DNA from: Dyadobacter fermentans
GTDB taxonomy: Bacteria > Bacteroidota > Bacteroidia > Cytophagales > Spirosomataceae
Direction: 5' to 3'
Length of the DNA: 64,000 nucleotides
Assembly (NCBI RefSeq): GCF_019924045.1
Contig: NZ_JAHXBN010000010.1
Coordinates: 868,001-932,000, forward strand
Shown here piece after piece: positions 2 to 60,376 of this stretch; position 1 is the stretch's first letter; every line of letters begins with the position of its first letter. Under the pieces are notes generated by a model. That model saw only the letters and a list, made by a program, of their open reading frames with translations, was not told the DNA's origin and ran no database searches. The position numbers were made by a program, and so were the translations under genes.

Positions 2-2350
2 CGCCGCCAGAAGTTGCTGACAGGCCTCGATAATTACGAGTTGTTTGATTTTAATGTCAAAATGGGCTTCCATCACCAGTATATGCGCAATATGCTGCAA
101 CTGAATGAGGGCTTGGGCAAGGGCACGAAACATCCGGTATTTTCCGAAATCGGCCAGCTTTCAGGCGTTTCCAATACCGACTGGAGCTGGGCGTCGCTAT
201 TCGCGGATTATGATAACGACGGCTGGAAAGATCTTTTCATCACGAATGGCAACCTTCGGGACTTCACCAATATGGATTTTGTGAAGTTTATGGGTGATCA
301 TTTGAAACGCATTGAAGGCCAGGTGAAGCGGGAAGACGTGCTCCAACTGGTGTACCAGATGCCGTCTTCGAACATGAAAAACTATCTTTTCCAAAACAGA
401 AAAGACCTGACATTTACCAACGTAGCCGACAGCTGGGGCCTCGGAGAAATATCCAACTCGGGTGGCGCAGCCTACGCCGACCTCGATAACGACGGCGACC
501 TGGACCTGGTCGTGAACAATATCAACAAGCCTGCATTCATTTACCAGAATGAAGGGGATAAGCATTTGAAAAATAATTACCTGAAAGTAAAACTGACCGG
601 GTCCGGCCAGAATACACTCGGCCTTGGCGCGAAAGTGACTATTTACCAGAGAGGCCAGCAACAGTACCTCGAACAAATGCCGACCCGCGGATACCAGTCG
701 AGCGTGTCGCCGACGCTGCATTTCGGATTGGGTAAGGAAGGGGCGGTTGATTCGCTGGTAGTAACCTGGCTGAATGGCAAGCAGGAAAAGGTGGTTAATC
801 CTAAAACAAATACCACACTGGCGCTGTCAGAGGCGAATGCCAAAGAAAAAGCGAAGGCTGCAAAAGCGGCTGCGCCCGTGTTTGTGCCGGTTGCTTCGCC
901 GATCGCATTCAAAAGCCCGGTTGTGAAAATGAATGACTTCAAACGTCAGCCGTTGCTGATCAACCCGATTTCCTTCTCGAACCCGTGCATGCGGAAAGGC
1001 GATGTAAACGGGGACGGCCTCGATGATGTGTTTATCGGAGGTACTTCGGGAGAAGCGGCTAAGTTGTATATCCAGCAAAAAGGCGGCGCATTTACCGTCA
1101 AGCCCGTTCCCGCTTTTGAGGTCGATAAGCGAAGTGAAGATACGGACGCATTGTTTTTTGATGCGAATGGTGACGGCGCACAGGACATATTCGTGGCCAG
1201 TGGCGGTTACGCGAGTTTCATGCCGGAGGATCCGTTGTTGCAAAGCCGGTTGTACATCAACGACGGCAAAGGGAATTTTACCAAAGCCTCTGGTGCATTG
1301 CCTGCTATGCTCACGAGCACGAGCTGTGTACGCTCCGCGGACATCAATGGCGACGGTAAGCCTGATCTTTTTGTGGGTGGCCGGGTCATTCCGGGCCGGT
1401 ACCCCGAAATACCCCGCAGCTATGTCCTGATTAATGACGGCAAAGGCAAATTCACCGATCAGACAGCTTCCATTTCCAAAGAGCTGGAAAACATAGGCCT
1501 GGTGACCGATGCTGCCTGGACTGACCTGAATGGCGACAAAAGAGCCGACCTGGTAGTGGTAGGAGAGTGGATGCCGGTTACGGTTTTGATCAACAACAAT
1601 GGCAAGCTCGAAAACAAAACCACTGAGTACTTTGACAAACCCTACAACGGCTGGTGGAACAAAATCCTCGTGGAAGACCTGAACGGAGACGGGAAGGAGG
1701 ACCTCGTGATCGGTAACATGGGTACCAACACCCAATGCAAAGCCAGTGATAGCGAGCCGGTGGAAATGGTGTACAAGGATTTCGATGACAATGGCTCCGT
1801 TGACCCGATTATGAGCTTTTACATTCAGGGAAAGAGCTATCCCTATGTTACCCGCGACGAAATGCTCGATCAAATGAGCATTATGCGTACCCGTTATCAG
1901 GATTACAAAAGCTACGCGGACCTGACGGTGAAGGAGATTTTTACCAAAGAAGAGCTGGAAGGAGCGAAGGAATTGAAAGCGACTTATCTGAAAACCGCTT
2001 TGTTCGAGCGGGCTGCGAATGGCAAGTTCGTTGAAAAGGCATTGCCCTTACAAACGCAGGTATCGCCAGTCTATACCATTACCTCGCTCGATTACAATGG
2101 CGATGGCAATAAGGACCTTTTGCTTTGCGGTAATATCAGCAAGGCGCGGCTCCGTTTCGGGAAGTACGATGCCAATTACGGTATTCTTTTGCAGGGCAAT
2201 GGCAAAGGGCAATTTGAATACGTCAATCAGGATAAATCGGGTTTTGGCTTGAAAGGCGATGTGCGCAGCGTGCTGCCGGTCGGTAACAAACTGCTATTCG
2301 GTATCAATCAACAGGAAATAAAAGCATATCAAATTGGTAAAGTTCAGTAA
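2..2350 (+). CDS. FG-GAP/VCBS repeat protein with ASPIC/UnbV domain (5' end outside window)
   Basis: The reading frame is open from the first bases, with residues RRQK before the TTG at 14, so this is the C-terminal part of a longer secreted protein. At least eight Asp-rich calcium-binding loops are visible (for example DYDNDGWKD, DLDNDGDLD, DVNGDGLDD, DINGDGKPD, DLNGDGKED, DYNGDGNKD), which are typical of FG-GAP/VCBS beta-propeller blades. Between the first two and the later loops, at roughly 580-810, lies an ASPIC/UnbV-like segment (LGLGAKVTIY, RGYQSS, FGLG, VTWLNGK). Family members are exported or cell-surface proteins of the CRTAC1-like group; their ligand is generally unknown. The stop codon overlaps the start of the next gene by 17 bases, so the two are probably co-transcribed. 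Confidence 0.9.
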   Translation, partial: RRQKLLTGLDNYELFDFNVKMGFHHQYMRNMLQLNEGLGKGTKHPVFSEIGQLSGVSNTDWSWASLFADYDNDGWKDLFITNGNLRDFTNMDFVKFMGDHLKRIEGQVKREDVLQLVYQMPSSNMKNYLFQNRKDLTFTNVADSWGLGEISNSGGAAYADLDNDGDLDLVVNNINKPAFIYQNEGDKHLKNNYLKVKLTGSGQNTLGLGAKVTIYQRGQQQYLEQMPTRGYQSSVSPTLHFGLGKEGAVDSLVVTWLNGKQEKVVNPKTNTTLALSEANAKEKAKAAKAAAPVFVPVASPIAFKSPVVKMNDFKRQPLLINPISFSNPCMRKGDVNGDGLDDVFIGGTSGEAAKLYIQQKGGAFTVKPVPAFEVDKRSEDTDALFFDANGDGAQDIFVASGGYASFMPEDPLLQSRLYINDGKGNFTKASGALPAMLTSTSCVRSADINGDGKPDLFVGGRVIPGRYPEIPRSYVLINDGKGKFTDQTASISKELENIGLVTDAAWTDLNGDKRADLVVVGEWMPVTVLINNNGKLENKTTEYFDKPYNGWWNKILVEDLNGDGKEDLVIGNMGTNTQCKASDSEPVEMVYKDFDDNGSVDPIMSFYIQGKSYPYVTRDEMLDQMSIMRTRYQDYKSYADLTVKEIFTKEELEGAKELKATYLKTALFERAANGKFVEKALPLQTQVSPVYTITSLDYNGDGNKDLLLCGNISKARLRFGKYDANYGILLQGNGKGQFEYVNQDKSGFGLKGDVRSVLPVGNKLLFGINQQEIKAYQIGKVQ

Positions 2351-3647
2351 CCTCCTTCTGGGAATGCTGCTGGTTGTCACGTGGGCGGCCTGCAAAAAGA
2401 GTGAGTCAAAAAAGGAAATCGATCCGACGGTGATCGGTCAGGTGACGCAGCAAATGACCGACGTAATGGTGCATGACGTCACTAACCCGCCGCTGGGGGC
2501 GCGGTTTTATTCCTACGCGTGTCTGGCAGGCTACGAAGTGATAGCTGCAAACGACAAAGCGTATCCTACCATGCACGGGGTCCTGAATGACTTCCCGGAA
2601 ATCGAAAAGCCGAAGGTCGCCGAGTACTCCTATCAACTGGCGGCAGCTTTGGCGATGCTCGAAACCGCAAAGAAAATGCAGCCTTCGGGTGGTTTGCTGC
2701 TCAAAAAGTACCAGCAGAGCCTGGTCGATTCCTGCAAGAAAATCGGGTTTACCGAAGAGATACTGGCCGGATCGCAGGAATATGCGCTGGCGATCAGCAA
2801 GCAGATCCTCAAATATGCCAAAGCCGACCGGTATAATAAGATCAGCAACTTCCCGCGTTATGAACCGCACGGCGGCCCGGGAACTTGGTACCCGACGCCC
2901 CCCGGCTATTTCCCGCCGGTAGAGCCTTATTTTAAAACCGTACGGCCATTCACATTAGACTCGGCAGCGCAGTTCAAACCCGCTCCGCCTGTCGCGTTCT
3001 CGGAATCGAAAGACTCGGAGTTTTTCAAGCTTATGAAGCGCAATTACGACGATGATCAAAAAGCGGAAGAGCACCGGGTAATCGCCGCGTTCTGGGATTG
3101 TAACCCGTTTGCATTGGAAAATAAGGGCCATTTATTGGTAGGGATGAAGAAAATCTCTCCGGGCGCACACTGGATGGGCATTACCGATATTGCCTGCCGG
3201 AAAGCGAAAACCGATTTCTCCAAAACCATGCTGATCAATACCTCGGTGGCGATCGGGCTGATGGATGGTTTTATGGCCTGCTGGGACGAGAAGTACCGCA
3301 GCAACCGCATCCGCCCCGAAACTGCCATCCGCAAATACATCGACCCGAGCTGGAAGCCATTTCTCCAGACGCCGCCATTTCCGGAATACCTGAGCGGACA
3401 CTCGGTGATATCAACAGCGGCTGCCGTTATTCTTACCCATTATTTCGGTGACAATTTCGCCTATACCGACACTGTGGAGGAACGCTTCAATCTGAAAGCG
3501 CGCCCATTCAGGTCCTTTCTTCACGCTTCGGAGGAATCCGGCATTTCACGTTTTTACGGTGGTATCCACTTTATGGATGCGATCGAGAATGGTCAAAAGC
3601 AAGGCCGGCAAGTCGGTGAATGGGTGGTTAGGAAGCTTGGAAGATAA
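2334..3647 (+). CDS. Vanadium-dependent haloperoxidase / PAP2-like phosphatase lipoprotein
   Basis: A 437-residue protein of the vanadium haloperoxidase/acid phosphatase superfamily. The vanadate/phosphate-binding signature is complete: KYRSNRIRP near residue 320, EYLSGHS near 350 and SRFYGGIHFMD near 404, the last carrying the His that would bind vanadate or form the phospho-enzyme. The TTG start at 2334 gives a lipoprotein signal (hydrophobic LLLGMLLVVTWAAC, lipobox cysteine about residue 20); an ATG at 2364 would shorten the n-region and is less convincing. It overlaps the preceding VCBS gene. That pairing recurs in Bacteroidota as I remember it, but the reaction is unproven: either halide oxidation or phosphatase activity is possible. 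Confidence 0.85.
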   Translation: MVKFSNLLLGMLLVVTWAACKKSESKKEIDPTVIGQVTQQMTDVMVHDVTNPPLGARFYSYACLAGYEVIAANDKAYPTMHGVLNDFPEIEKPKVAEYSYQLAAALAMLETAKKMQPSGGLLLKKYQQSLVDSCKKIGFTEEILAGSQEYALAISKQILKYAKADRYNKISNFPRYEPHGGPGTWYPTPPGYFPPVEPYFKTVRPFTLDSAAQFKPAPPVAFSESKDSEFFKLMKRNYDDDQKAEEHRVIAAFWDCNPFALENKGHLLVGMKKISPGAHWMGITDIACRKAKTDFSKTMLINTSVAIGLMDGFMACWDEKYRSNRIRPETAIRKYIDPSWKPFLQTPPFPEYLSGHSVISTAAAVILTHYFGDNFAYTDTVEERFNLKARPFRSFLHASEESGISRFYGGIHFMDAIENGQKQGRQVGEWVVRKLGR

Positions 3648-3787
3648 ACTAGATTTTTGGCAACTCTTGTTTAAGAAAATGCAGCAAACTCATGACTATA
3701 ACTCCATGGCAATCGCTGGAAACTGGCTTAACCTTTTTTCGATGACGTCTTGAATTCTCCTTACTAGCATGTGATAAAGTTACATAC

Positions 3788-3830
3788 TAACCTAGTAAAT
3801 CCAAAACTGAACTTTGGATTTACTAGGTTA
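3788..3830. terminator. Perfect 18-bp hairpin overlapping the patatin stop codon
   Basis: Arms 3788-3805 and 3813-3830 are exact reverse complements around a 7-nt loop (actgaac). The stem is AT-rich and lies between the convergent haloperoxidase and patatin genes; the TAG stop of the patatin gene (3823-3825) is inside the right arm. It could act as a bidirectional terminator or mRNA 3'-end protector. No long T-run follows, so factor-independent termination is only likely, not certain. The rest of 3648-3787 shows no gene. Confidence 0.6.
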
Positions 3831-4578
3831 ATTGCCTGGTGTGATTGAGCAAAACCTTCGTGAACGTGTATCCCACCTCAAACAACTGATCCGCCTTCCT
3901 GAAATCGAAAATGCTGAAACGGCTCAATGCCGGCGGTTCGATCAGCAGGTTGCATTTCGTGAAGCGGGCTTTGGTTTTGGTATGCATGGCCAGAATGAGG
4001 CTGCGGTAGATGATCTCCGTGGTCCGTTTAAGCGGTTTATCCAGATTGAACGGATTGCAATGGCTCCCGATAATATAATCTGCCTCGTCGAGCACCGGTT
4101 CGACGGGCAGGTTATTCAGAACGCCTCCGTCGACTAACTCGTGTCCACTGTAATGCATCGGACTGAAAAGCCCGGGAATGCAGCAAGAGGCTAGGACGGG
4201 TAATGCCAGTTCCCCGCTTCTGAAACGGACTTCCTCTCCTGAAACAATGTCGGTAGCGGTCACTACCAGCGGCGTTTTTAAAGATTCAAAAGTGTTTTCG
4301 GGAATGAACTTGCGGAAGACATCCTCCATCTTTCGCATATGCAGCAGTCCGTTCGCACCGATTCCGAATCTTAAATATGGGTAAAAACTCGTGTCGCGGA
4401 TGATTTTGAGAATCTTGCCCGGCTCGTAGCCGTGCGCCAGCAGCGCGCCCACAAAGGCGCCCGAACTCGTCGCGCTGATCACATCGGGTCGCACGCCACG
4501 CTCCCATAACGCCTGCGCCACACCCACATGTGCGATCCCACGCGCGCCCCCGCCTGAGAGGATTAGTGCTGTTTTCAT
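3823..4578 (-). CDS. Patatin-like phospholipase family protein
   Basis: A 251-residue protein with the patatin fold signature: oxyanion loop SGGGARG at residues 8-14, nucleophile elbow ATSSG with Ser38, and the catalytic Asp in VDGGVLNNLP near residue 150. The elbow has Ala where the usual GxSxG has Gly, a tolerated variation. There is no signal peptide, so it should act in the cytoplasm or on the inner face of the membrane, hydrolysing acyl esters of phospholipids. It is the last gene of a minus-strand run after the VapBC-like pair, with 2 bases between it and the broken toxin gene. The substrate cannot be told from sequence. Confidence 0.88.
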   Translation of the reverse strand: MKTALILSGGGARGIAHVGVAQALWERGVRPDVISATSSGAFVGALLAHGYEPGKILKIIRDTSFYPYLRFGIGANGLLHMRKMEDVFRKFIPENTFESLKTPLVVTATDIVSGEEVRFRSGELALPVLASCCIPGLFSPMHYSGHELVDGGVLNNLPVEPVLDEADYIIGSHCNPFNLDKPLKRTTEIIYRSLILAMHTKTKARFTKCNLLIEPPALSRFSIFDFRKADQLFEVGYTFTKVLLNHTRQLT

Positions 4579-4580
4579 GG

Positions 4581-4968
4581 TTAGGGAAGAAGTATTAATT
4601 CATCGACTCGTTCGAAATGCTTCACATTCAACGTTATTAGCGGCAAGCTGTAATGAACTGCCGTAGCGGCTATGAAAAGATCTGCCATGCCGATTAATTT
4701 GCTTTGCTTCTTGAGGGTCTTGTTGATGCCGACAGCCGTGCGAGCGACCTCTTTGTCGAATGCCAAGACCTGGGTTCTGAACAAAAAGTCCTCCCAATAA
4801 TCTATCTGATTTGGTAGTGCCGGTGTAAATTTCGAATTCGGTAATCGCCGAAATGCAAAAGTGAGCATCTCCGGTTACCAATTTCATTAGCCGGGAATTT
4901 GCCTTGTCGGATTTGCGGAAAAAATCGATGAGAATGGAAGTGTCAACAAGCACTAGTTCTTTCGCCAT
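4581..4968 (-). pseudogene. PIN-domain VapC-type toxin, frameshifted
   Basis: Two overlapping frames together make one PIN-domain protein. The first frame, from the ATG at 4968, reads VLVDTSILIDFFRKSDKANS and then ISAITEFEIYTGT, giving the first acidic residues of a PIN nuclease. The frame is then lost, and the next frame continues with QIDYWEDF, VLAFDKEVA, LIGMADLFIAATA and LPLITLNVKHF, which is the C-terminal half with the further acidic residues. The shift lies at about 4800-4820 and equals one extra base or two missing bases. No obvious slippery heptamer is visible there. An intact protein would be an RNA-cleaving toxin of about 128 residues. It may be a true pseudogene, a sequencing error, or less likely a programmed frameshift. 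Confidence 0.8.
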
Positions 4969-36594: not shown

Positions 36595-36642
36595 AAAAAG
36601 CGAAAGCCCTGGAATGATTACATTCCAGGGCTTTCGCTTTTT
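36595..36642. terminator. Perfect 22-bp bidirectional terminator
   Basis: Arms 36595-36616 and 36621-36642 are perfect reverse complements around the 4-base loop atta. A/T runs flank both sides (aaaaag / cttttt), and the site lies between the convergent esterase and pheS stop codons, so it can end both transcripts. Confidence 0.95.
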
Positions 36643-38543: not shown

Positions 38544-38687
38544 AATTTTGAATGATTAAATGAATGATTGATTGAAGAATAAAAGTCAGGTATAGTCTAA
38601 GGTCAGATGTTGTTTTTCTGGCAATTCATGACCACTTCGACTCAATGACAATTATTCGGTCATTCAATCATTCAGTCATTCAAAATT
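38544..38687. repeat. Long-range inverted repeat of gaatgatt units
   Basis: Left arm 38544-38577 (aattttgaatgattaaatg...) and right arm 38660-38687 (...cagtcattcaaaatt) are imperfect reverse complements about 80 bases apart; each arm is built of short GAATGA/TCATTC units. The right arm overlaps the stop codon of the outer-membrane barrel gene at 38686. It looks like an extragenic repeat rather than a simple terminator. Confidence 0.55.
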
Positions 38688-39402
38688 AGAATAACTTCAA
38701 CCCGAGCGTCACCTGCCACGAGCTTACCTTCTGTTTCAACGAGGCGCCGCCGTTAACAGGTTGGCCGCTCACCTGAAATGAGGCCAGGTTAGTGAAAGAA
38801 CCTTCTTTTCTTACGTCCAGACTAAAATTGCCCAAATCCAGGCCTGCTCCAAGTTGGTAGCCGAACGTGGCTTCGGACATAGCATTGTTCAAATCAGATG
38901 TGTAATATTTGAATGCGTCGCGCAGGCGCTGGTTGTCGCCGATCCGAAAGGAAGTAACCGGCCCCGCGAGAATGCGGAATGGACCGCCCTTCAAACCGAT
39001 CAACAATGGCACGTCGATATTGCTGTATTTTACATTGATCGTTTTTTCAACCGGTGTTTCCTGATCATTCTGGATTATTTTGAACGAACCTCCCTTCGTC
39101 GAGACGAGTACTTCGGGCTGGATGAATATCGTTTTGCCGAAGCGCATCCAGATCCCACCTACGGCACCGGTCCTTGTGTTGAAACTTTCTTTCAGGTTAT
39201 CCCGAACCTCTTTACCGTCATATCCGAGATATGGATTTCCATTATCATCGTAACGTGTTGTGAAAACGTCGCCCATCGTAAGCCGCGACAAGTTCACCCC
39301 TCCTTTGATACCAAACGCAAAACCTTTCTTCTGGGCCTGCACATTTGAGAATGCGAAAATGCAGAGCAAACAGGCACAGGCCATTTTTGTCAGGATGTTC
39401 AT
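38686..39402 (-). CDS. Outer-membrane beta-barrel protein, PorT-like
   Basis: A 238-residue protein with a signal peptide (MACACLLCIFAFSNVQAQ) and eight-strand type barrel pattern: FGIKGGVNLSRLTMGD, TGAVGGIWMRFGKTIFIQPE, VSTKGGSF, VKYSNIDVPLLIGLKGG, FRILAGPVTSFRIGDN and an aromatic VTLGLKLF end. It matches the outer-membrane protein beta-barrel (PorT) family of Bacteroidota, whose members are common and mostly uncharacterised; it is not by itself evidence of the T9SS PorT protein. Confidence 0.82.
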   Translation of the reverse strand: MNILTKMACACLLCIFAFSNVQAQKKGFAFGIKGGVNLSRLTMGDVFTTRYDDNGNPYLGYDGKEVRDNLKESFNTRTGAVGGIWMRFGKTIFIQPEVLVSTKGGSFKIIQNDQETPVEKTINVKYSNIDVPLLIGLKGGPFRILAGPVTSFRIGDNQRLRDAFKYYTSDLNNAMSEATFGYQLGAGLDLGNFSLDVRKEGSFTNLASFQVSGQPVNGGASLKQKVSSWQVTLGLKLF

Positions 39403-39567
39403 GGATAATATGATTTTTTAAGTAAAACAGGTTAATAACGCCAATTTGCAAAAAACTATACCTATCCTACATTTTTTTTGATTTTATGGCCAAAACATGC
39501 AAAAATTGGATTAATATCGTCGGAATTACGTTAGTCACCAAGGGGATATAAATTAGACTATTCTATT

Positions 39568-40941
39568 ATGGCCAAAGCCAAGACGGCATATTTTTGTCAG
39601 GAATGTGGGTATAATTCGCCAAAATGGGTGGGCCGATGTCCGTCGTGCGGTGAATGGAATACTTTCGTTCAGGAAGTTATTGAAAAGGAGGACAAAAAAA
39701 CAGCGGTTTCCTGGAAATCGGTGAACCTGGCCAGCCGTCCTCGGGCGATTGCTGAAATTGTCTACGAAAATGAACCACGCATCCGCACATTCGACGAGGA
39801 GCTAAACCGCGTACTTGGCGGAGGTATCGTACCGGGCTCGCTGGTGCTGATCGGCGGCGAACCGGGAATCGGGAAGTCGACATTAATGCTGCAAATCGCA
39901 TTGACACTTTCCAATAAAAAAGTGTTATATGTTTCTGGCGAGGAGTCCGAAGCGCAAATCAAGATGCGGGCGGAGCGGATGACGGCCCAAAGTGATAACT
40001 GCTTTATTCTTACAGACACTCAAACGCAGAATATTTTCAGGCAAATAGAGGACTTTCAGCCGGAGATCCTGATTGTTGACTCGATACAGACGATGCAATC
40101 GACTTATATCGAGTCGGGCGCGGGTAGCGTGTCGCAGGTGCGCGAGTGTACGGCGGAATTTATGAAGTATGCCAAGGAAATGGGCGTCCCGGTGTTCCTG
40201 ATCGGGCACATTACGAAAGACGGTTCGCTTGCAGGGCCCAAAGTGCTGGAACATATGGTGGATACCGTCCTGCAATTCGAAGGGGACCGCCACAATACAT
40301 ACCGCATATTGCGGACGATGAAGAACCGTTTCGGAAGCACTTCTGAACTGGGCATTTACGAAATGCAGGGAAGCGGCCTCCGGCAGGTGAGCAACCCCTC
40401 GGAAATCCTTATTTCGCAGCGCGATGAGCCGGTCAGCGGTATCGCGATTGGCTCGATGATGGAGGGAAATCGCCCGTTGCTTGTGGAAATCCAGTCGCTG
40501 GTAAGTGTGGCAACCTATGGCACGCCACAGCGGAGCAGCACAGGGTTCGATGCGAAGCGGTTGCAGATGCTGCTGGCCGTGCTCGAAAAACGGGGCGGTT
40601 TCAGGCTTGGCGTGCAGGATGTGTTTTTGAATGTCGCCGGCGGCTTAAAAGTCGAGGACCCCGCGATTGACCTCGCGGTGATAGCTTCGCTGGTGTCTTC
40701 TTATGAGGATAAATTCATTCCGCCATCGGTATGTTTTGCAGCGGAAGTGGGTTTGGGTGGCGAAGTACGCGCGGTGAATCGCATTGAGAGCCGTGTTTCC
40801 GAAGCGGAAAAACTCGGCTTCAAGAAAATTTATATCTCAAAATACAACAGTAAAGGACTGGATTTAAAACGAGGGAAGATCGAAGTGATTCCGGTAGCGC
40901 ATTTGGATGAGCTTTTTATGTCGCTTTTTTTGAATCAATAG
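39568..40941 (+). CDS. radA: DNA repair protein RadA
   Basis: A 457-residue protein with the classical RadA layout: N-terminal zinc finger CQECGYNSPKWVGRCPSC, a RecA-like ATPase with Walker A GGEPGIGKST near residue 92 and Walker B LIVDSIQTM, the RadA motif KNRFGST near 251, and a C-terminal Lon-like domain (LGGEVRAVNRIESRVSEAEK). It helps branch migration during recombinational repair. It appears complete and stands alone. Confidence 0.96.
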   Translation: MAKAKTAYFCQECGYNSPKWVGRCPSCGEWNTFVQEVIEKEDKKTAVSWKSVNLASRPRAIAEIVYENEPRIRTFDEELNRVLGGGIVPGSLVLIGGEPGIGKSTLMLQIALTLSNKKVLYVSGEESEAQIKMRAERMTAQSDNCFILTDTQTQNIFRQIEDFQPEILIVDSIQTMQSTYIESGAGSVSQVRECTAEFMKYAKEMGVPVFLIGHITKDGSLAGPKVLEHMVDTVLQFEGDRHNTYRILRTMKNRFGSTSELGIYEMQGSGLRQVSNPSEILISQRDEPVSGIAIGSMMEGNRPLLVEIQSLVSVATYGTPQRSSTGFDAKRLQMLLAVLEKRGGFRLGVQDVFLNVAGGLKVEDPAIDLAVIASLVSSYEDKFIPPSVCFAAEVGLGGEVRAVNRIESRVSEAEKLGFKKIYISKYNSKGLDLKRGKIEVIPVAHLDELFMSLFLNQ

Positions 40942-59800: not shown

Positions 59801-59864
59801 GGCGCACTGATTTCTCTAAGATCACAATTTGTGATCTTAGAGATTGAACCGGTGCTCGTGCGCC
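59801..59864. repeat. 31-nt palindrome within an outer GC stem, after the ORF6N gene
   Basis: A 31-nt palindrome at 59813-59843 (arms tctctaagatcacaa and its reverse complement, one central t) is framed by an outer stem ggcgcac/gtgcgcc (59801-59807 and 59858-59864) followed by T-rich bases, so the whole can act as a terminator for the methyltransferase gene. The core is almost the same as the palindrome inside the ORF6N gene at 60160-60202. Confidence 0.85.
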
Positions 59865-59866
59865 TT

Positions 59867-60376
59867 TTATTTTGCTGACTGCTGCCTGAAACCGACCTGC
59901 CTTCTTTCCTTCTGTGGCGGTTTCAAAAGGTAACTGAGTGCTTGGTGGATGTCGTTGAATTTTACCTGCATTTCATCTTCCAGCTTGTTAATTCGCTCTC
60001 TAAGTTCCTTTGAGTCAATATAATGCTGCCTGATGCTTACAAATGCACGCATGATCGTAATGTTCACTTGTATCGCTTTATAGCTGTTCAAAACGCTCGA
60101 TAACATGGCTACTCCCTGTTCGGTAAAGGCAAATGGCAGATACTTCGCGTGACGTCCTTTACCTTTCTCTAAGGTCACAAATTGTGACCTTAGAGAAAGG
60201 TACTCCTCTCGTGTTAGCTCGAACATAAAATCGTCGGGAAACCGCTCGATGTTTCTCCTAACGGCTTGTTTTAGGACTTTTGTTTCAATTTCATACAATT
60301 CTGCGAGATCAAAGTCCAACATGATTTTGCATCCGCGAAGCGTGTGAACTTTGTTTTGAATAACCATTAATTCCAT
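59867..60376 (-). CDS. ORF6N (KilA-N/Bro-like) DNA-binding domain protein
   Basis: A 169-residue protein from the ATG at 60376. The ORF6N core is VHTLRGCKIMLDFDLAELYE, ETKVLKQAVRRNIERFPDDF, ELTREEYLSLRS and then KYLPFAFTEQGVAMLSSVLN; a helical C-terminus (ELRERINKLEDEMQVKFNDI) probably mediates oligomerisation. ORF6N domains occur in phage and NCLDV regulators and in chromosomal Bacteroidota genes, and are thought to bind DNA. The gene stands opposite its neighbours in the polysaccharide region. Its coding sequence contains a perfect 43-nt palindrome (Tyr59 to about Gly72), and a related palindrome lies 24 bases past its stop. Confidence 0.87.
   Translation of the reverse strand: MELMVIQNKVHTLRGCKIMLDFDLAELYEIETKVLKQAVRRNIERFPDDFMFELTREEYLSLRSQFVTLEKGKGRHAKYLPFAFTEQGVAMLSSVLNSYKAIQVNITIMRAFVSIRQHYIDSKELRERINKLEDEMQVKFNDIHQALSYLLKPPQKERRQVGFRQQSAK
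60160..60202. repeat. Perfect 43-nt palindrome inside the ORF6N coding sequence
   Basis: Arms 60160-60180 and 60182-60202 (21 bases each, one central a) are exact reverse complements. The core tctctaaggtcacaa differs from the copy downstream of the gene by one base in each arm, in a symmetric, pair-preserving way. It encodes SLRSQFVTLEKG of the ORF6N protein, using several less common codons such as cta and agg. Confidence 0.95.

What the first reader, a model, noticed from the sequence alone, without database searches (positions are those of the whole stretch)
59813..60202. ORF6N gene with matching palindromes inside and just after it
The coding sequence holds a perfect 43-nt palindrome (21-bp arms, 1-nt spacer) and 24 bases past the stop lies a 31-nt palindrome with the same core. 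In the 15-base arms the two differ only at one position (g in the coding copy, a in the other), and the opposite arm carries the matching change (c versus t), so both stay perfect. A codon-encoded palindrome of this length with a compensated second copy is hard to explain by chance. Inference: the ORF6N protein recognises this site for autoregulation, or the palindrome is a mobile element whose spread is tied to ORF6N genes, with the coding copy as a source or target.
Basis: partly seen in the sequence, partly recalled or inferred. Interest (0 to 1): 0.8.

Follow-up and report, generated by a model that had tools for sequence, protein, structure and literature searches.

The report
Gene carrying its protein's binding site
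A widespread family of bacterial DNA-binding proteins appears to carry its own recognition site, a perfect palindrome, inside the gene that makes it, and the protein's DNA-reading residues change hand in hand with the site, so each gene seems to spell out both a key and its lock.

Summary
Both palindromes are real. The coding one is not a local oddity: a dyad of about 27 bp sits at the same place in most ORF6N genes examined, over many phyla, far above synonymous-codon expectation, with paired base changes, and in a minority in a second reading frame. It codes for a poorly predicted loop beside the helix-turn-helix. Decisive: residues outside the palindrome co-vary with it almost one to one. 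Residue 36 goes with base -4 (Q:A 111 of 112, E:G 39 of 40, K/R:C 26 of 27), residue 32 with -7, wing residue 77 with -10 (183 genes); 42 of 48 residue-36 changes on a tree fall where base -4 changes. RhuM genes independently show the same layout and coupling (63 of 66); Bro-N partly; KilA-N not. So the protein most likely reads the site in its own gene; autoregulation is the likeliest consequence, untested. The downstream copy differs exactly at -7, the base linked to residue 32, so it is predicted non-cognate; flanking copies fit their gene's code in 13 of 46 cases, coding copies in 211 of 219.

The parts
59867..60376 (-). ORF6N gene (169 codons plus stop from ATG 60376-60374; the mechanical ORF starts at TTG 60388)
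   Evidence: ORF; Pfam PF10543, 117.4 bits; start by comparison with relatives
60160..60202 (.). coding palindrome, 21-bp arms, centre 60181 = base 1 of codon F65 (numbered from the E after the start Met); proposed binding site of the encoded protein
   Evidence: family-wide conservation; co-variation
60266..60280 (-). codons of recognition-helix residues Q36 (60266-60268), V33 (60275-60277), K32 (60278-60280), which co-vary with site bases -4, -4/-5 and -7
   Evidence: helix 31-40 in the model
60143..60145 (-). codon of wing residue K77, which co-varies with site base -10
59813..59843 (.). downstream palindrome, 15-bp arms, centre 59828; differs from the coding copy at -7/+7 only; predicted non-cognate to K32; lies between the stops of two convergent genes
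   Evidence: code; same position in close relatives L005 and L006, absent from L007 and L034

Best explanation
The coding palindrome is the binding site of the protein that the gene encodes. The ORF6N protein (helix-turn-helix, wing, long helix) most likely binds it as a dimer: recognition-helix residues 36, 33 and 32 read base pairs -4, -4/-5 and -7 of each half-site, and wing residues 77 and 78 go with -10 and -8. The site has room inside the gene because it is coded by a flexible loop at the wing, so gene, protein and target travel as one unit. Most likely consequence (inferred, about 50%): bound protein blocks transcription of its own gene and holds its level down. The downstream copy is most likely a relic or a differently specified copy, not a matching second operator. 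Shown: the site, its dyad, its family-wide conservation and its co-variation with the protein. Inferred: binding, dimerisation, the effect.
For: Fixed place in ORF6N genes of many phyla (129 of 132 distinct loop regions score 6 or more, two of them, L066 and L087, at another place), and in a Bacteroidota sample found by Pfam and not by palindrome (70 of 72 score 6 or more, one, L271, elsewhere; plus 31 of 38). Same nucleotide core in two reading frames (phase 0: 120, phase 1: 9). Several Watson-Crick types at each arm position 4-13 without preference for sense G.T. Seven protein columns outside the palindrome stand out against the site, three in the recognition helix and four in the wing (partial r 0.22-0.50; next 0.136; maximum of 100 permutations over a quarter of the columns 0.143). 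Near one-to-one pairing with contacts expected from general knowledge: Gln with A, Arg/Lys with G of the other strand, Glu with C. Repeated two-way co-changes on a tree: 42 of 48, 32 of 50, 38 of 63. Independent replicate in RhuM. The window protein fits its own coding site at -4, -7 and -10, and its genome has one exact GGTCACA..TGTGACC place, the gene itself.
Confidence: 0.8

Rival explanations
1. Mutational upkeep only: the protein motif happens to be nearly palindromic, and template switching between the arms during replication perfects it, giving paired changes without any function.
For: Template switching is known to homogenise inverted-repeat arms, also in coding DNA (PMC8604942, abstract; PMC8794818, abstract and start of introduction). 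Perfect palindromes persist in loci without a whole ORF6N gene, one with 19-bp arms and outer bases not seen in the relatives (L199), and in a broken gene with 21-bp arms (L211). Some arms exceed the usual 13 bp.
Against: It does not predict that residues about 90 bases away in the recognition helix change with the site, the same in RhuM, the same core in a second reading frame, or absence from KilA-N genes (0 of 28 at p 0.01). It may still help to keep the arms perfect.
Confidence: 0.1
2. Replication-initiator-like element: as in phage lambda O or plasmid RepC, the protein binds an origin or handling site inside its own gene and so drives replication or transfer of the element.
For: Same layout: lambda ori iterons 1-4 are annotated inside the CDS at 38686-39585, the O gene by recall (the record's product label is wrong); RepC binds the origin within its own coding sequence (PMC2783167, passages). 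ORF6N genes also occur on plasmids and in viral contigs.
Against: Usually a single site, in chromosomal genes with no replication gene beside the window's copy, and short proteins in which Pfam finds no further domain; origin activity untested.
Confidence: 0.15
3. Recombination or homing site: palindromes are crossover or cleavage points by which ORF6N genes exchange their middle part or are lost.
For: Six related Dyadobacter-group loci have near-identical gene ends but a strongly diverged middle; a plasmid trio has a gene with the start of one neighbour and the rest of the other; genes deleted up to a palindrome with hybrid outer arms (L200, L201); residual ORF6N-like stretches at some flanking palindromes (4 clear of 37).
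Against: No nuclease or recombinase domain found by Pfam; palindromes are deletion-prone in general; at the Dyadobacter locus the gene is mostly in one syntenic place; does not explain residue-base pairing.
Confidence: 0.15
4. mRNA hairpin in the coding sequence controlling translation or decay.
For: Long perfect arms would fold in RNA; paired changes.
Against: Sense G.U-type pairs are not favoured: at arm positions 4-13, 16 G.T against 31 A.C mismatches in 131 genes; RhuM positions 3-12, 1 against 6 in 28 genes. Co-variation is with DNA-binding residues.
Confidence: 0.04

Closest known systems
Phage lambda O protein and ori iterons
   Same: A DNA-binding protein whose annotated binding sites lie inside its own coding sequence; from recall, they encode a flexible part and specificity differs between lambdoid phages.
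   Different: Four iterons and a replication role in lambda; here usually one dyad, in stand-alone bacterial genes, with no replication role known and the site inside the wing loop of the DNA-binding domain itself.
RepC of repABC plasmids
   Same: Initiator binds the origin within its own coding sequence (PMC2783167, passages).
   Different: Part of a replication operon; no residue-base code in the passages read.
Coding palindromes in nematomorph mitochondrial genes
   Same: Perfect inverted repeats kept inside protein-coding genes (PMC6649704, abstract).
   Different: Up to 284 bp, in mitochondrial genes including respiratory complex I; the abstract names no DNA-binding protein.
Rickettsia palindromic elements
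   Same: Palindromes inside reading frames (recalled; only a search listing seen).
   Different: Those are dispersed in unrelated genes (recalled); these are largely confined to ORF6N loci.
Operators inside genes, such as lac O2 in lacZ (recalled)
   Same: Regulatory dyad inside a coding sequence.
   Different: There the site lies in a target gene, not in the DNA-binding-domain codons of the regulator.

Membership tests
ORF6N domain proteins (PF10543) | profile score above curated cut-off | tested here: met
   117.4 bits against 27.8
Genes with the site of their own DNA-binding protein inside (lambda O / RepC type layout) | candidate site inside own coding sequence, kept across relatives | tested here: met
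Genes with the site of their own DNA-binding protein inside (lambda O / RepC type layout) | the encoded protein binds that site | tested here: inconclusive
   strong co-variation of recognition residues and bases; binding itself not measured
Genes with the site of their own DNA-binding protein inside (lambda O / RepC type layout) | site acts as replication origin | not testable with these tools
   -
Autorepressor with matching operators around the gene | flanking sites match the protein of the same gene | tested here: not met
   13 of 46 flanking palindromes without a misfit at the coded positions, against 211 of 219 coding sites
Dispersed palindromic elements (RPE, REP type) | many copies scattered through the genome in unrelated places | tested here: not met
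   2 places in the own genome; 48 of 59 and 34 of 36 places at ORF6N or former ORF6N loci
Structured mRNA element | base pairs kept with sense G.U tolerated | tested here: not met
   G.T 16 against A.C 31 at arm positions 4-13
Winged-helix DNA-binding fold (Ski/Dachshund, MerR, RacA) | clear structural match | tested here: inconclusive

The most novel reading that the evidence does not exclude
ORF6N, RhuM and part of Bro-N are self-addressed genes: the main specific target of the protein is the site inside its own reading frame, so each gene is a portable immunity or incompatibility unit that silences (or acts on) any incoming copy of the same specificity. Specificity then diversifies like phage immunity groups, which would explain the fast residue-base co-evolution, the mostly non-cognate flanking copies and the different sites of paralogues in one genome. 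Because every gene spells its own target, sequence databases would yield a helix-turn-helix recognition code without any binding experiment.
Probability: 0.35. Interest if true: 0.95.

Novelty: new variant of a known kind. Interest (0 to 1): 0.88.

Why it matters
Gene families found in over a quarter of the Bacteroidota genomes searched (ORF6N in 117 of 395; RhuM in 56 of 198) have, as far as I know, no established function; this gives them a predicted DNA target, base by base, and a testable role. It shows one stretch of DNA serving as both protein-coding loop and candidate binding site, with amino acids partly dictated by the dyad. It also offers a natural data set from which a protein-DNA recognition code can be read from genomes alone and tested by single swaps.

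Tried and rejected
Mobile palindrome: not taken as the main account, because most copies lie at ORF6N or former ORF6N loci. Eleven of 59 places in the genus lie elsewhere and are unexplained.

mRNA hairpin: not supported, for lack of G.U tolerance.

Flanking copies as own operators: not met, 13 of 46. A first count (8 of 30) had left out copies close behind the stop codon, the window's own among them, and was replaced. A few of the 46 (L081, L087, L107, L254) are probably not ORF6N-type palindromes; R32 was allowed both A and G. In one search, 4 of 37 flanking palindromes lay clearly in ORF6N-like sequence.

Incompatibility test: paralogues of one genome share an identical core in 1 of 65 pairs against 150 of 3421 between genomes; the direction fits but permutation P is 0.22, so not significant (86 genes of 41 genomes or plasmids, 2 without a site).

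Rows left aside: the loop pattern missed 38 of 110 loci, looked at apart (31 of 38 with a palindrome of score 8 or more at the expected place, by my count; without: L251, L276, L281, L286, L326, L329, L330). Those 110 loci were taken from the listed, best-scoring matches, a capped list. Of 7 long genes, 3 had p 0.05 or less. In one search, 12 of 110 genes had p above 0.05: ten with shifted-frame or inserted loops misplaced by the alignment (most were centred; L095 has a stop in the loop) and two weak ones (L025, L087). The 110 include a few genes twice (L007/L034, L011/L035). One search used 183 of 204 genes (palindrome score 6 or more, phase 0, long enough, distinct). In one search, 2 of 70 RhuM loci were missed by the pattern and duplicates dropped to leave 66; 64 scored 6 or more, one of them (L377) at another place. 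In one search the longest open frame was taken, which was wrong for some loci; one search repeats it with the listed strand and frame: p 0.01 or less in 8 of 29 Bro-N (one, L334, at another place), 17 of 30 RhuM, 0 of 28 KilA-N; p 0.05 or less in 9, 23 (one, L367, elsewhere) and 1. The pRha search gave 2 of 296 genomes over the cut-off and was not used.

Literature (open-access library only): searches returned no paper; ORF6N occurs in 5 papers, seen as a listing; (RhuM with palindrom-) returned 34 papers, 10 listed, none on this by title or abstract start, none read; one search returned 1 and one search returned 2, listings only; one search returned 2, of which passages were read. So none that I saw describes palindromes inside ORF6N or RhuM genes; papers outside the library are not covered.

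Full report
Observation. The window lies in an 8.0-Mb genome of the Dyadobacter group (inferred from the named close relatives Dyadobacter endophyticus and D. luticola). The ORF6N gene is on the minus strand at 59867-60376. It holds a perfect palindrome with 21-bp arms around 60181; a second one with 15-bp arms around 59828 lies 23 bases beyond the stop codon, between the stops of two convergent genes. The cores differ only at the base pair seven positions from the centre, on both arms. The own genome has one ORF6N gene and no further copy of the 31-mer within three mismatches.

Family-wide feature. In 110 ORF6N loci fetched by similarity to the protein (30 of the Dyadobacter relatives and their order, and 80 named contigs of many phyla; a few genes are in twice), the segment centred on base 1 of the codon aligned with F65 is self-complementary. 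For 97 of 110 the pairing beats 2000 synonymous recodings at p 0.01 or less. Ten of the other 13 are genes in which the palindrome is shifted by inserted residues or lies in another frame: in the ITxCD subfamily the same TCACAAnTTGTGA core sits two bases upstream and is read in a different frame. Over 132 distinct loop regions, phage and plasmid-like loci included, 129 score 6 or more (two, L066 and L087, at another place), 120 in phase 0 and 9 in phase 1. Pairing is 88-98% at arm positions 4-11, 86% at 12, 76% at 13, and falls to background by 16-18 (131 genes). Up to four Watson-Crick types occur per position, often with coupled amino-acid changes (RSQxVT, RTQxAS, RCQxGT, RTKxSS). Sense G.T mismatches are not favoured (16 against 31 A.C at positions 4-13), which speaks for a DNA dyad rather than an RNA hairpin.

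Sampling control. A Bacteroidota sample taken by the Pfam model alone (117 of 395 genomes have ORF6N; 110 loci taken from its capped list) repeats this: of 72 genes found by a loop pattern 70 score 6 or more (one, L271, elsewhere), and 62 of 65 short genes, but only 3 of 7 long ones, have p 0.05 or less. The remaining 38 loci, mostly proteins of about 300 residues, carry the palindrome in 31 cases, several with two palindromes 12-14 codons apart. Among other open frames of 150 codons or more in the 80 named loci, real genes or not, 24 of 320 reach score 8 and 6 of 320 reach 10 anywhere.

Where the copies lie. In 48 genomes of the genus the core pattern occurs at 59 places in 32 genomes; by my sorting 48 are at an ORF6N gene or at the same locus after loss of the gene, and 11 are elsewhere. 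In 29 genomes of many phyla, 34 of 36 places are in or beside an ORF6N gene, and one of the other two has a short ORF6N-like stretch around it. The reversed-pattern control was 0 in both searches. So this is mainly a local element of the gene, not a dispersed repeat.

Who reads it. The predicted structure (mean pLDDT 80.1) has helices 20-26 and 31-40, strands 50-52 and 81-84 and a long helix 98-150; the palindrome codes for the poorly predicted stretch between the strands. If the protein reads the site, DNA-contacting residues should change with it. In 183 genes, after correction for overall protein distance, seven columns outside the palindrome are associated with the core above the permutation maximum of 0.143 (100 permutations, a quarter of the columns): residues 36, 32 and 33 (partial r 0.50, 0.35, 0.25) and four wing positions just before LPFAFTEQG (0.22-0.40). 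The pairing is nearly one to one: residue 36 Q with A at -4 in 111 of 112, E with G in 39 of 40, K or R with C in 26 of 27; residue 32 K with G at -7 in 110 of 111, R with A in 44 of 59 and G in the other 15; residue 77 K with A at -10 in 63 of 64, R with G in 92 of 93. Gln-A, Arg/Lys-G and Glu-C are the contacts that general knowledge of helix-turn-helix proteins expects.

Tree control. On a tree made without these columns, 42 of 48 residue-36 changes fall on branches where base -4 changes (6.2 expected), in both directions and repeatedly; 32 of 50 for residue 32 with -7, 38 of 63 for residue 77 with -10. For other columns the median fraction coinciding with -4 changes is 0.16, the highest 0.36, against 0.88 for residue 36. 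Five genes break the rule; two of these have a misplaced site (L066, L087), and one, L112, has two sites upstream that fit its own residues.

Replicate and control families. RhuM genes (PF13310) have a different palindrome, mainly in phase 2, at the expected place in 63 of 66 distinct genes. Recognition-helix positions W+14, W+15, W+16 and W+19 co-change with bases -8/-7, -6, -5/-4 and -4/-5 (each p 0.0004 or less). In a whole-gene test against synonymous recoding with the listed frames, p is 0.01 or less in 17 of 30 RhuM, 8 of 29 Bro-N (one at another place) and 0 of 28 KilA-N genes. The arrangement thus occurs in at least two families with different sites.

The window's own pair. K32, Q36 and K77 fit the coding palindrome at -7, -4 and -10. 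The downstream copy has A at -7, which in the data goes with R32, so it is predicted to be a poorer or non-cognate site. Over all ORF6N genes at hand, flanking palindromes show no misfit to their own gene's code in 13 of 46 cases, coding palindromes in 211 of 219 records. At the Dyadobacter locus most genes share neighbours on at least one side. In six related loci with flanks about 84-93% identical a downstream copy comes and goes between conserved flanks, and the middle of the gene is strongly diverged between near-identical ends. Five of the 18 genomes of the genus without an ORF6N match keep the palindrome at the place of the lost gene. I read the flanking copies as relics or differently specified copies and leave their upkeep open; template switching is a plausible helper (PMC8794818, PMC8604942, abstracts).

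Mechanism and limits. The best account is that the protein binds the dyad in its own gene; autoregulation by binding inside the transcribed region is the simplest consequence. An initiator-like role, as in lambda O (iterons annotated inside the gene) or RepC (PMC2783167, passages), is not excluded. No binding, dimer or expression data exist here. The incompatibility idea has a fitting but non-significant trend (1 of 65 against 150 of 3421 pairs, P 0.22).

Noticed in passing
L220 (Parabacteroides distasonis plasmid), 3010-4743: Three ORF6N genes in tandem; the middle one has the start of the third and the rest of the first, a likely recombinant.
   Followed up: partly
L219 (Bacteroides ovatus plasmid), 1109-3552: Two site-specific integrase genes directly followed by an ORF6N gene, with an ITxCD-type palindrome just after the first integrase gene.
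   Followed up: no
L015 and L016, about 1359-1445: Upstream of the ORF6N gene lies a fragment similar to residues 49-77 of another ORF6N allele, palindrome included.
   Followed up: partly
L288, L304, L305, L318, L260: Long ORF6N genes carry two palindromes in the loop, 12-14 codons apart, sometimes of different type.
   Followed up: no
G037:C5, G040:C6, G014:C30, G015:C18: The palindrome GATCACATACTGTGATC (or its complement) recurs away from ORF6N loci in four genomes of the genus.
   Followed up: no
L350, L353 (Bro-N) and many RhuM loci in L363-L392: Some Bro-N and many RhuM coding palindromes share outer arms of the CAGTT type although the cores differ.
   Followed up: no
L199, 3005-3043: A 39-nt perfect palindrome with outer bases not seen in relatives at a locus whose ORF6N gene is lost; hard to explain by selection through the protein.
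   Followed up: partly
36595-36642: A perfect 22-bp inverted repeat with a 4-base spacer and flanking A and T runs, probably a terminator.
   Followed up: no
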